From NCBI GenBank assembly GCA_007753915.1, contig CP036352.1, positions 3,845,306 to 3,909,305 on the forward strand: a DNA stretch of 64,000 nt. The letters run 5' to 3'. The notes below the pieces were generated by a model. The model was not told the DNA's origin, did not search any database, and worked only from the letters and a program-made list of their open reading frames with translations. Origin of the DNA: Phycisphaerae bacterium RAS2 (GTDB taxonomy: Bacteria > Planctomycetota > Phycisphaerae > UBA1845 > UTPLA1). Below are positions 8,928 through 13,310 of this stretch, in pieces (position 1 is the first letter of the stretch; each line of letters opens with the position of its first letter). The position numbers and the translations under genes were made by a program.

Positions 8928-9167
8928 GGCTGGGACTCCCACGGCCTCCAGGGGCCGTTGCCTTCGCCCGGGCTGATTTGCCAATCAGCGGCCTTCGCGC
9001 GAATACGCTGGGAGCGCGCGCGAAACCTCGGACCTGGGCGATCTGCGAATTTCTGGTTGTGTTCTCGAAGCGGATGGTCGCTCTCAAAACCACCCGCCCC
9101 GGCTAACTCGACCCCGGTTCACCCGGAGCCATGCGGGGGGAGTCTGTTACAACAAACCGACAAGAGG

Positions 9168-9195
9168 AATATATCACGCCTTTTTTGTTACGCAA
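9168..9195 (-). promoter_or_regulatory. Candidate promoter of the sigma factor gene
   Basis: On the minus strand TTGCGT (9195-9190), a 16-base spacer and TATATT (9173-9168) fit a sigma-70 consensus. It lies in the only strongly AT-rich non-coding stretch of the first 10 kb. The gap between the sigma start (8927) and the receiver-like gene (9426) is about 500 bases and holds no other gene I can support. The leader would be roughly 230 bases. Confidence 0.5.
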
Positions 9196-9425
9196 ATCAT
9201 CGCTACCGTTAAATGTTATGGCCGGTAACCTGTACCTTTCGGAACAAACTTAAACAACTACAGGGAAACACCTTAAGCGAATTAGGGCATGGCGAGAAAT
9301 CCGAAAAAAACTTGCCGGACAACTTGTAACAGGACTTATAACTCGCATTACCGAAAACCGTGCACTGTGACACCCAAAGACTGATAATGTTAACTTAGCT
9401 CCCTTTCGGCGAATTGCTACCCTCG

Positions 9426-9815
9426 TTAGCCCCTTCGGGAAAGGTAACGCGACAACAAGGCCACCGTATCCGGCGAATCGACGACCGCTTTGCCAAACCC
9501 CATCACACCGCCCGCGGCCACACTCTTCGCCTGCGCTTTCTCAAAGTTGCTGATCATCATGATCGGCGCCTGCTTCACGGTTGAATCGCCTTTCGCGCGG
9601 TGCAACAGCTCGATTCCCTCGCTCCCGTCGTCAAAGATCAGGCGATTAAACAGCACCAGGTCGTACTGATTCGCACGCAGTTTCGCCAATGCCTCGTCGA
9701 CGAACATCACGCGATCAATGGACACGTTGAAATTCTTCTCCAACATGCCCCGGATCATCCCATGGTCCGGGTCGCAATTGCCCACATCCAGCACCCGCGA
9801 AGCGTCTTTCGCCAT
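9426..9815 (-). CDS. Receiver-like domain protein lacking the phospho-acceptor aspartate
   Basis: A 129-residue stand-alone protein with the response-regulator receiver pattern: beta1 RVLDVGNCDPD, beta3 YDLVLFN, beta4 APIMMIS, and a late Lys in GFGKA. In normal receivers beta3 ends with the phosphorylated Asp; here that position is Asn57 (LVLFN). The acidic pocket is reduced to the CDPD motif. The start at 9815 is chosen over 9818 because GAGGA lies five bases ahead of it. It resembles an atypical or pseudo-receiver that would act through protein binding, not phosphotransfer. The next gene downstream on the same strand is the sigma factor, about 500 bases away, so a partner-switch-like link is possible but unproven. 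Confidence 0.78.
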   Translation of the reverse strand: MAKDASRVLDVGNCDPDHGMIRGMLEKNFNVSIDRVMFVDEALAKLRANQYDLVLFNRLIFDDGSEGIELLHRAKGDSTVKQAPIMMISNFEKAQAKSVAAGGVMGFGKAVVDSPDTVALLSRYLSRRG

Positions 9816-9886: not shown

Positions 9887-11071
<1,185 letters not shown>

Positions 11072-11148
11072 TTTGTCGTTTGCAGTTCTCTGGCAACTTG
11101 TCTTGATGCACTTGTAGAGCCTACAAGGCCACTTAATAGGACTAATTG

Positions 11149-12006
11149 ATGCTTGACATTAGACACGCTTCCACTGCTTTACTTTTCTCGACAGTACGAG
11201 TTGAGTGCACTTCGCCAGATGGCTCAACTTGTGTTGGCACAGCGTTCTTTTTTGAATTTCGCGGAATTGAAAAACATGTTCTTCCCCTGCTTGTGACCAA
11301 TAGACATGTTGTTGAAGGAAGTGTGTACGCAGAGTTCTTGGTACACCTTGCATGCAAGTCAGGCGATAAAAGGTACGATCAAGGGGACCCTCCATCGGGT
11401 GATTCGATCCGTATTAGGGTTGATACTGACAATAACTGGATTCTTCATCCAACAGAGGATTTGTGCGCATTGCCAATCGCATCATTACTTGATGCCGCAG
11501 ATACAGACGCTAATAGAATTTTCTACCGTCCATTGCATGACGGAATCCTTCCTGATGAGCGTGAACTACGGATGATGGCTGCTGTTGAATCTGTATTAAT
11601 GATCGGCTATCCAACTGGATTGTGGGATAGAACAAATAATTTGCCCTTGATTAGACAAGGAATTACAGCAACACCGCCGATTGTTGATTACGAAGGCACC
11701 GCAAGAGGGATTGTGGACATTGCTTGTTTTCCGGGTTCATCGGGATCGCCGATTGTAGTCGCACACGAGGGGGCGTTCTTGCGAGGACGAAGCTTAGTAA
11801 CTACTAAGGCTCCCTATGTTAGGCTGATCGGCATCTTGTCATCTGGACCATTATTTGATACAGAGGGAAGCGTAGAAGTCGTAGAAGCCCCCGCGACACG
11901 TGTGCCAATTGCACGCCTCGGAATCCCAGTCCATCTCGGTTATTACGTCAAAGCGAAAGCACTGAATTATTTCAGGGAATACGCAATGACATTATCATCT
12001 TTGTAA
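11149..12006 (+). CDS. Trypsin-like serine protease
   Basis: A 285-residue protein with a chymotrypsin-fold catalytic triad: H53 in VTNRHVV, D104 in PTEDLCALPI, and S198 in FPGSSGSPIVV. No signal peptide or membrane segment is evident, so it looks cytoplasmic. The start at 11149 (ATG) is preferred over an in-frame TTG three bases upstream. Base composition is clearly AT-richer than the flanking aminotransferase, with codons such as TTA, AAT and ATT common, which suggests recent transfer. Stand-alone proteases of this type (Trypsin_2) occur as effectors in bacterial defence modules. It converges with the cyclase-like gene at 12073 across a 66-base gap. A housekeeping role is equally possible. 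Confidence 0.85.
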   Translation: MLDIRHASTALLFSTVRVECTSPDGSTCVGTAFFFEFRGIEKHVLPLLVTNRHVVEGSVYAEFLVHLACKSGDKRYDQGDPPSGDSIRIRVDTDNNWILHPTEDLCALPIASLLDAADTDANRIFYRPLHDGILPDERELRMMAAVESVLMIGYPTGLWDRTNNLPLIRQGITATPPIVDYEGTARGIVDIACFPGSSGSPIVVAHEGAFLRGRSLVTTKAPYVRLIGILSSGPLFDTEGSVEVVEAPATRVPIARLGIPVHLGYYVKAKALNYFREYAMTLSSL

Positions 12007-12072
12007 AGAAAGAACGCTCTTAACCGATGGCTCTAGCTTGAGCCCTTGCACTGAAGCCCGCTTTCCCATCGG

Positions 12073-12852
12073 CTAGAGTCTCGCACGAGTATTTGGACCA
12101 AGAGGTTTGACGGGATTTGACTTCTGTATTGTTGACATTGCATAATCGAAGAAAGCAATCGTATTCGCAAATTTGCCTTCTGTCCCAAAGGGGATTCTGT
12201 GATTTGACAGGAATTGGAGTAGTTTTTCCTTGGGCTCCTCACCACTCTGGCATGGCGTTAGCGCCGGGACATTAAAAACTTTCGGCCAATTAACTGCCTT
12301 TAACGGAATACATCGCCCATCCTTAACAGGAACCGCATAGTTCAATATCAAATGCTCCTTTTTGCTTTGTGAGCTATTCTGAGTCATTTGTTGAATGATA
12401 AGAGACGCGCGAGGTGTAGCGTGAATCCCAATCCAATCCGCCTTGTCATACCAAGCAGCAGCGTCCGTTACTGCATTACCGAGCACTGTATTCGTATCGT
12501 CATTCAAGTAGAACTCGCCTAGTGCAACCGCTCCTCGAAATAGGATTCCGTATTCAAGTGAATCCACAAAGAATTTTCTCATCAACGTGAAGAATTTCGT
12601 GATTTGATCAAGAGTCGGGGGTATTGCTCGTGTTCGCAAGATAATCAAGACAGTATCATTGAATGTGAATGTCTTAAGCATCCCCGGTAATATCGCGTCT
12701 CCAATTTTAAGCGCCTTTTCTTCGAGAAGTTGCATGACCTGCTCACGCGAGTCAATAAACCGCATTATTTCTTCGTCACTGTAGTTTGCCGCGCCAAGCG
12801 CATCGAGTATCGCGACAATGCCATGTTCCTTCTTGCTATTGGGACTCTTCAT
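12073..12852 (-). CDS. Protein resembling a class III nucleotide cyclase catalytic domain
   Basis: A 259-residue AT-rich gene. The order of motifs matches the class III cyclase fold: AILDALG with D17 at the place of metal-binding Asp 1, FNDTVLI with D66 at the place of metal-binding Asp 2, then FRGAVALGE and GNAVTDAAAWYDKADW at the region of the VNxAxR helix. Both metal ligands are kept, but the conserved Asn and Arg of that last helix are Thr129 and Trp134. Activity as a cyclic-nucleotide synthase is therefore uncertain. No membrane segment or sensor domain is seen. Homologues of this general type occur as single small genes in accessory regions; related true cyclases (Pycsar) act in antiphage signalling. 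It ends 66 bases from the protease. Confidence 0.55.
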   Translation of the reverse strand: MKSPNSKKEHGIVAILDALGAANYSDEEIMRFIDSREQVMQLLEEKALKIGDAILPGMLKTFTFNDTVLIILRTRAIPPTLDQITKFFTLMRKFFVDSLEYGILFRGAVALGEFYLNDDTNTVLGNAVTDAAAWYDKADWIGIHATPRASLIIQQMTQNSSQSKKEHLILNYAVPVKDGRCIPLKAVNWPKVFNVPALTPCQSGEEPKEKLLQFLSNHRIPFGTEGKFANTIAFFDYAMSTIQKSNPVKPLGPNTRARL

Positions 12853-13310
12853 GTTCGCTTGATCCGTTTATCGAGAACTGCGATATGCCCGAATAGATTG
12901 ACAGCCGTCAGAAGGTATTATGTTATTGCGTAGAGTAATCCCTTGCAAATGAACCGTGGTGGAGCCGACATGCGGGCGCGTTGATAATACTCGTGTGAGG
13001 GCCGCACGCACGTTGCCGGGGGCGCGGTGAGCGAAGTGAGCAAGCCCCTGGAGGGCAAGCCTGTTTCAATTTGCACTTTCTTTCCCCGCCCGGAGGGCGG
13101 ACGAAGTGGGCACGAGCGTGCACGCAGTGAGAATGCTCACCTGAAAAGAGAATCTTGCTTGTTGCGCATGTCCTCGTTCGCCCTCCTGGCGAAATGGTCC
13201 CTTTGGGGGCAGCTTTCCGGCGGCTGAAGCCGCCGGCGACGTGCGCGCGCCCTGCCGGGCGGCGAGACCGTGGCACGGTGCGGCGTTGCGGGGCACCGTG
13301 CGTCGTTGAA
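12853..13310. other. Gene-free stretch rich in palindromes
   Basis: No open frame here has a recognisable product. The stretch contains several palindromes: GCGGTGAGCGAAGTGAGCAAG (13024-13044), CCGCCC/GGGCGG at 13086-13100, and the 47-base element at 13216-13262. Very similar elements recur at 28.75-28.99 kb. It may be a mosaic of REP-like repeats marking a recombination-prone boundary of the accessory patch. Confidence 0.7.
13216..13262. repeat. Dispersed palindromic element, copy 1
   Basis: CCGGCGGC (13217-13224), loop TGAA, GCCGCCGG (13229-13236), followed by ACGTGCG and a second short GCCC/GGGC palindrome. It matches the element at 28941-28985 over nearly its full length with only a few differences. 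This is the REP-like type common in planctomycete intergenic DNA. Confidence 0.75.

What the first reader, a model, noticed from the sequence alone, without database searches (positions are those of the whole stretch)
12073..12852. Cyclase-like protein with both metal Asp residues but altered transition-state residues
Seen: D17 in AILDALG and D66 in FNDTVLI fit the two metal ligands; FRGAVALGE and GNAVTDAAAW follow in order. The Asn and Arg of the catalytic VNxAxR helix are Thr129 and Trp134. Known: class III cyclases need these residues for turnover. Inference: either a divergent enzyme with a different product, or a binding-only relative.
Basis: partly seen in the sequence, partly recalled or inferred. 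Interest (0 to 1): 0.63.

Follow-up and report, generated by a model that had tools for sequence, protein, structure and literature searches.

The report
Cyclase-fold protein with remodelled active site
The gene encodes a protein built like the enzymes that make cyclic nucleotide signals; it keeps the metal-holding residues but, like the family found around it, lacks the usual catalytic pair, and some relatives sit beside antiviral defence genes.

Summary
In detail: an intact 259-aa gene on the MINUS strand (12852 to 12073). Its predicted fold is the class III cyclase palm (all 50 listed PDB matches; VIA Z 14.8). D17 and D66 take the positions of the two metal aspartates. One assignment is off by one: Asn of VNxAxR is Thr129, but Arg (Asn+4) is Ala133, not Trp134; three profile alignments agree. 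The substitution is not a private defect. Among 40 family members found here (P0001 included) the metal Asps are kept in 39 and 40, while none keeps both Asn and Arg (Asn 1, Arg 7); 19 ordinary class III domains keep both in 19. The family has its own conserved residues (W140, W189, K227, N230). P0001 matches no Pfam, NCBIfam or PADLOC model. The gene shares a low-GC patch with a trypsin-like peptidase (PADLOC candidate PDC-S45); some relatives lie beside TIR, SIR2, DISARM or restriction genes, or in a prophage-like contig. Best reading: a metal-dependent nucleotide enzyme with a rebuilt catalytic site, carried as mobile and possibly defence-related cargo. Activity and product are untested; binding-only remains possible.

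The parts
12073..12852 (-). gene for the 259-aa class III cyclase-fold protein (P0001)
12802..12804 (-). codon of D17, first metal aspartate (in predicted strand 7-18)
   Evidence: profile alignments; 39 of 40 members
12655..12657 (-). codon of D66, second metal aspartate (turn between predicted strands 59-64 and 67-73)
   Evidence: 40 of 40 members
12517..12537 (-). R106-G112, counterpart of the R-x-G-x-x-x-G strand of class III cyclases
   Evidence: R106 39 of 40, G112 39 of 40
12451..12480 (-). G125-W134 helix, counterpart of the GDxVNxAxRL helix; Asn is T129, Arg is A133, W134 is at the Leu
12322..12324 (-). codon of K177 (VPVK), aligned with the Lys of the canonical vKGK strand
   Evidence: one alignment; Lys in 27 of 40; phosphate-binding role recalled, not tested
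12286..12288 (-). codon of W189 (NW motif), family-specific
   Evidence: 32 of 40 members, 7 of the other 8 gapped
12163..12174 (-). K227-N230 (KxxN), family-specific C-terminal motif outside the part of the model that aligns with cyclases
   Evidence: K 32 of 40, N 27 of 40; low-confidence part of the model
11146..12006 (+). convergent neighbour: trypsin-like peptidase, PADLOC candidate family PDC-S45
   Evidence: Trypsin_2 E 5.5e-6, just at the curated cut-off; PDC-S45 E 1.1e-83
12019..12083 (.). hairpin between the two convergent genes, possibly a shared terminator
   Evidence: sequence; ViennaRNA -19.8 kcal/mol, no shuffled control
11000..12950 (.). patch of 45-48% GC holding both genes; most 500-base windows from 6 to 18 kb outside it have 56-70%, apart from a dip to 51-52% at 9.0-9.75 kb

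Best explanation
P0001 is a class III cyclase-fold protein that binds a metal-nucleoside triphosphate through D17 and D66 (helped by R106 and K177) and acts on it with a rebuilt catalytic site: the classic Asn/Arg pair of the partner helix is gone, and residues conserved in this family (W140, W189 and the C-terminal K227-x-x-N230 motif) probably take over part of its role. It belongs to a patchily distributed family, some members of which sit beside defence genes or in a prophage-like contig, so its most likely job is to make a nucleotide-derived signal, or otherwise modify nucleotides, upon phage attack. Shown: the gene, the predicted fold, the residue correspondences, family-wide conservation, the defence or prophage context of some relatives, the low-GC patch. 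Inferred: catalysis, the role of K177/K227/N230, horizontal arrival, the defence role of this copy. Unknown: substrate, product, effector.
For: Fold: AF2 model (pLDDT 69.7, pTM 0.70; ten-residue blocks 66-89 up to residue 160); all 50 listed Foldseek matches are class III cyclases or PycC proteins, best E 4.8e-7; VIA Z 14.8 over residues 3-190. Profile: A2 against 19 canonical domains Prob 92.5, 40-row set 95.7, against 0.0-2.4 for five reversed or shuffled controls. Conservation in 40 members over 180 aa, P0001 included: D66 40, D17 39, R106 39, G112 39, W140 34, K227 32, W189 32, N230 27, K177 27. Control: 19 of 19 canonical domains keep Asn and Arg, including the one in this genome (L026). 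Context: PADLOC matches beside relatives; TIR-like PDC-S35 within 3 kb in 2 places where 0.017 were expected, DrmMI/type IIG-like in 4 where 0.10 were expected (families chosen after being seen there); prophage-like contig L013.
Against: No activity data. Both transition-state residues and the base-contacting Lys are lost. No conserved partner gene: the peptidase next door has no homologue among the 502 gene calls of the 42 loci gathered. No adjacent cNMP receptor; the only PF00027 match of the genome is 2.1 Mb away. For the closest relatives the context is not defence-like: the one neighbour of L001 tested (PIN-like, L133) matched no PADLOC family, and no neighbour of L002 was tested. The C-terminal motif region is modelled with low confidence.
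Confidence: 0.5

Rival explanations
1. Binding-only relative: the protein keeps metal-NTP (or cyclic nucleotide) binding but no turnover, and works as a nucleotide sensor or as a non-catalytic subunit.
For: Loss of Asn and Arg and of the base-contacting Lys. One solved structure with this fold, 6yii, is titled 'Class III adenylyl cyclase-like ATP-binding protein'.
Against: Metal Asps and R106 are conserved in 39-40 of 40 members and the K177 position in 27, although 16 relatives compared are only 15-50% identical to P0001; this is more than binding alone usually demands. 6yii is called a clade A PycC in PMC11224242.
Confidence: 0.24
2. An ordinary cNMP cyclase that tolerates the substitutions, as Rv1900c tolerates loss of Asn, feeding the single PF00027 (cNMP-binding) protein of the genome.
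For: Rv1900c lacks the Asn according to PMC4886424; the genome encodes one PF00027 protein; Thr122 is the residue that 16 of 19 canonical domains have at that position.
Against: Arg is lost too (kept in only 7 of 40 members); the base-contacting Lys is Phe62; the genome already has a canonical cyclase with Asn and Arg.
Confidence: 0.19
3. A decaying gene on a mobile patch.
For: Low-GC patch; none of the same-class genomes in the samples is listed with a match.
Against: Full-length intact frame; the residues invariant in the seven closest members are all present.
Confidence: 0.04

Closest known systems
Class III adenylyl/guanylyl cyclases (Pfam PF00211 Guanylate_cyc)
   Same: Predicted fold, two metal aspartates, the RxGxxxG strand, Thr at the Asn-7 position, a Lys at the vKGK position
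   Different: No PF00211 match; Asn to Thr129, Arg to Ala133, base-contacting Lys to Phe62; extra C-terminal region with a KxxN motif
Pycsar pyrimidine cyclases PycC (8jsz AnPycC, 6yii PaPycC)
   Same: Class III fold, metal Asps, changed base-recognition residues; a few relatives lie beside a TIR-like gene
   Different: No PADLOC PycC match for P0001; no adjacent cNMP-binding receptor; the stretch 176-216 of PaPycC (one of its two cyclase domains) keeps the Asn and has Lys for Arg (weak alignment)
DUF2652 nucleotide cyclase-like proteins (PMC4886424)
   Same: Class III-like proteins of about 250 aa; the mycobacterial ones lack the Asn
   Different: In that paper the mycobacterial ones keep the Arg, the Bacteroidetes ones vary there, and base-contacting K/E or E/K pairs are present; P0001 matches no Pfam family
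phrog_23933 (phage family of unknown function)
   Same: Matched by 11 of 17 members, best E 1.8e-23; P0001 itself E 0.032
   Different: No function assigned

Membership tests
Class III nucleotidyl cyclase | palm-type cyclase fold | tested here: met
   (predicted model)
Class III nucleotidyl cyclase | two metal-binding aspartates | tested here: met
   D17, D66; 39 and 40 of 40 members
Class III nucleotidyl cyclase | transition-state Asn and Arg of VNxAxR | tested here: not met
   T129 and A133; both present in 0 of 40 members and 19 of 19 canonical controls
Class III nucleotidyl cyclase | base-contacting pair (Lys, and Asp or Thr) | tested here: inconclusive
   Lys position is Phe62, second position is Thr122 as in 16 of 19 canonical domains
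Class III nucleotidyl cyclase | match to PF00211 | tested here: not met
   0 Pfam families at E up to 1; PF00211 finds only L026 in this genome
Class III nucleotidyl cyclase | head-to-tail dimer with the active site at the interface | not testable with these tools
   single-chain prediction without coordinates only
Class III nucleotidyl cyclase | cyclises an NTP | not testable with these tools
   needs purified protein
Pycsar PycC | match to the PADLOC PycC models | tested here: not met
   no family at E up to 1; 1 of 17 members at E 0.0041
Pycsar PycC | adjacent effector with cyclic-nucleotide-binding domain | tested here: not met
   peptidase next door; only PF00027 match is at G000:C1:1723200-1723451
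Pycsar PycC | makes cUMP or cCMP | not testable with these tools
   needs assay
DUF2652 | match to the Pfam model | tested here: inconclusive
   no Pfam family at E up to 1, but I did not check that this Pfam copy holds DUF2652
Defence-island family | relatives lie beside defence genes more often than chance | tested here: inconclusive
   more than expected, but the two families were chosen post hoc and neighbours were hand-picked; for the window copy only a candidate family, PDC-S45

The most novel reading that the evidence does not exclude
An uncatalogued family of class III-fold enzymes makes a nucleotide signal by a catalytic mechanism that does not use the Asn/Arg pair, with the C-terminal KxxN motif acting in its place, and serves as signal generator in new antiphage systems (with TIR, SIR2 or DISARM partners, and here perhaps a trypsin-like protease).
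Probability: 0.25. Interest if true: 0.82.

Novelty: new variant of a known kind. Interest (0 to 1): 0.46.

Why it matters
If the family is catalytic, it would show that class III cyclase chemistry can run without its signature transition-state pair, and could add a nucleotide signal to bacterial antiviral immunity. The conserved metal pair and the KxxN motif give point mutants that test this directly.

Tried and rejected
Chance resemblance: rejected; five reversed or shuffled profiles give Prob 0.0-2.4 against 92.5 and 95.7. The close profiles alone (A1, A3) do NOT reach class III (Prob 0.4 and 2.1); only the wider sets do. Library scans of 17 members gave, besides phrog_23933, only families matched by single members; the strongest of these are phrog_21097 (E 1.4e-5, unknown function), DUF3684 (E 0.002) and PycC (E 0.0041). 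PycC membership: rejected by model and context. The PycC model matched 167 of 294 genomes, at several of the places that PF00211 also matched, so it looked unspecific and was not used further. A fixed operon with the peptidase: not supported. Sequence collections: tblastn of P0001 in 50,697 phage records (E up to 1) and of the L013 protein (E up to 1e-3) found none; both found only a Fusobacterium record among plasmids; viral contigs gave none with P0001 and only the L013 contig with A1 and with the L013 protein. Viral structures gave one match at E <= 0.001, a giant-virus protein named response regulator. Direct D17-D66 distance: not obtained, since no call returned coordinates; equivalence rests on alignments and secondary structure. 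CyaB1 and the Burkholderia PycC are not among the 50 chains listed by Foldseek or VIA; that excludes nothing. The second structure job and the third Foldseek job were not used. One search scanned 10 neighbour proteins with Pfam, 8 of them also; it confirmed helicase, methylase, AAA and restriction domains and added no conserved partner.

Choices that bias counts: the 18 neighbour proteins given to PADLOC (1, 10, 7) were picked by eye as defence-like or adjacent, from 502 gene calls in 42 loci (the window's own locus included; one locus, L132, where my gene caller missed the cyclase-like gene); 14 of 18, from 9 of 11 loci, matched at E <= 1e-5. The two families tested for proximity were chosen after seeing them beside relatives, so the Poisson values (1.4e-4 and 3.8e-6) are optimistic; the 59 places were merged by hand from the table. 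The 19 canonical domains are 22 picked of the 25 loci, less 3 cut by contig ends (L030, L039, L047); L045, L049 and L050 were not taken. The 40 members are the 50 matches less 10 pieces of 180 aa or fewer. The genome samples overlap.

I therefore moved the odds slightly from binding-only (0.25 to 0.24) to ordinary cyclase (0.17 to 0.19), and set the defence-association row to inconclusive.

Literature: none of the papers listed in the searches is by its title or abstract about this family; PMC4886424 is the nearest. The library is open-access only, and the first Pycsar paper is not among the five listed. PMC4886424 was read in parts 1 and 2 of 6; PMC11224242 in passages and section 6; PMC12429752 in passages; all others only as search listings.

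Full report
What is there. The window encodes a 259-aa protein on the minus strand at 12073-12852. Close homologues (51%, and 46-49% depending on the alignment) exist in a Deltaproteobacteria and a Nitrospira assembly, a 30% one in a Planctomycetota assembly. It has no second copy in its genome. P0001 matches no Pfam, NCBIfam or PADLOC family and no PDB sequence above noise.

Fold. AlphaFold2 with a five-row alignment gave pLDDT 69.7 and pTM 0.70, with strands and helices in the order expected of the class III core (recalled); residues 190-259 are poorly modelled. Foldseek against the PDB gave 43 matches at E <= 0.001, and all 50 rows listed are class III cyclases or PycC proteins, with AnPycC (8jsz) at rank 46 and PaPycC (6yii) at rank 49. 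VIA-align gave Z 14.8 to cyclases over model residues 3-190. D17 lies in the first strand and D66 in the turn between the second and third, as expected for the two metal ligands; their distance could not be measured.

Residues. A 17-row profile (A2) had adenylate cyclase 3mr7 as its best PDB match (E 0.14, below significance but collinear) and reached 19 canonical class III domains with Prob 92.5, E 4.8e-7; the 40-row set gave Prob 95.7, E 9.7e-9, against 0.0-2.4 for five reversed or shuffled controls. All three alignments put D17 and D66 on the metal Asps, T129 on Asn, A133 on Arg and W134 on the Leu after it. One search also puts K177 (VPVK) at the Lys of the vKGK strand, recalled to bind the triphosphate. 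Of the base-contacting positions, the Lys (16 of 19 canonical domains) is Phe62, but Thr122 is the residue that 16 of 19 canonical domains have. The narrow profiles A1 and A3 did not reach class III on their own.

The family. Searches of 294 genomes (with P0001) and 392 (with A1) of the window's phylum, overlapping samples, and of 295 and 297 genomes from the phyla of the L002 and L001 assemblies, found matches in 8, 12, 19 and 8 genomes, centre genomes included. Iterated search over the fetched loci gave 50 proteins, 40 longer than 180 aa, P0001 among them. In these 40: D66 40, D17 39, R106 39, G112 39, W140 34, K227 32, W189 32, N230 27, K177 27; at position 129 Asn 1, at 133 Arg 7, both together 0. 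Ordinary cyclase domains from the same phylum keep both in 19 of 19, including the single one of this genome. In the seven closest members neither occurs. Loss of the pair with strict retention of the metal site is thus a property of the family as sampled. A tree puts P0001 in a clade of 11 (support 99/95), nearest the Nitrospira and Deltaproteobacteria proteins (99/96) rather than the same-phylum proteins of the sample, as horizontal transfer would give; the window's phylum itself is not named to me.

Surroundings. The gene and a convergent trypsin-like peptidase (11146-12006, PADLOC PDC-S45, E 1.1e-83) share a patch of 45-48% GC; most windows around it have 56-70%, with another dip to 51-52% at 9.0-9.75 kb. 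A hairpin lies between the two genes. PDC stands for phage defense candidate; a PDC-S45 was reported in a Sinorhizobium prophage (PMC12429752, passages). Among 42 loci hand-picked neighbours matched PADLOC models: PLD-Snf2 helicase and type IIG enzyme (L126), type IIG and a GajB-like helicase (L115), DrmMI with TIR-like PDC-S35 and SIR2 (L075), DrmMI (L132), TIR-like PDC-S35 (L128), AriAB-like ATPase and HmaB/DUF1156-like methylase (L123), type I R-like (L072), SIR2 (L135); no match for one gene each of L126, L075, L069 and L133. TIR-like PDC-S35 lies within 3 kb of the family gene in 2 of 8 places, 0.017 expected; DrmMI or type IIG-like in 4 of 59, 0.10 expected (families chosen post hoc). 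L013 carries the gene between an endolysin-like and an integrase gene of a prophage-like contig (these two gene names are my reading of the sequences, not from a family scan).

How it works. Most likely a metal-dependent nucleotide enzyme whose catalytic helix has been rebuilt. Retained parts would hold metal and triphosphate; the missing Asn/Arg must be replaced, and K227 and N230 are the conserved polar residues C-terminal to the part that aligns with cyclases. That replacement is inference. Rv1900c shows that the Asn can be absent (PMC4886424, parts 1-2). PycC enzymes show that base-recognition residues can change within the fold (PMC11224242, passages and section 6).

Verdict. Observation right but for one residue; interpretation partly supported. 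A new variant of the class III cyclase kind: by fold it belongs, by the catalytic signature it does not, and the same holds for the family around it. Not shown: activity, product, partner, defence role of this copy.

Noticed in passing
window 11146-12006 (+): Trypsin-like peptidase matching PADLOC phage-defence candidate PDC-S45 (E 1.1e-83), convergent with the cyclase-like gene in the same low-GC patch.
   Followed up: partly
L128 5421-7098; L075 5424-8368: TIR-like PDC-S35 genes directly upstream (L128), or with one SIR2-like gene between (L075), of cyclase-like genes; one genome from the search of the window's phylum, the other from the search around the L001 genome: a possible new signalling pair.
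   Followed up: partly
L012 4717-6501: N-terminal repeats that look like TPRs fused to the cyclase-like domain in Fusobacterium vincentii SB055 (no family scan of that part alone); the 2.1-Mb record is labelled a plasmid but has the size of a chromosome.
   Followed up: no
L013 5333-7388: Three-gene run between endolysin-like gene and integrase-like gene in a prophage-like contig: an integron-cassette-like protein (PF21648, E 4.4e-8), the cyclase-like protein, and a 240-aa protein without Pfam match.
   Followed up: partly
L126 6582-7523; L115 6491-7414: Cyclase-like genes next to type IIG restriction and helicase genes; in L126 the called start overlaps the stop of the type IIG gene by one base.
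   Followed up: partly
window 9000-9750: A second, smaller GC dip (51-52%) not looked into.
   Followed up: no
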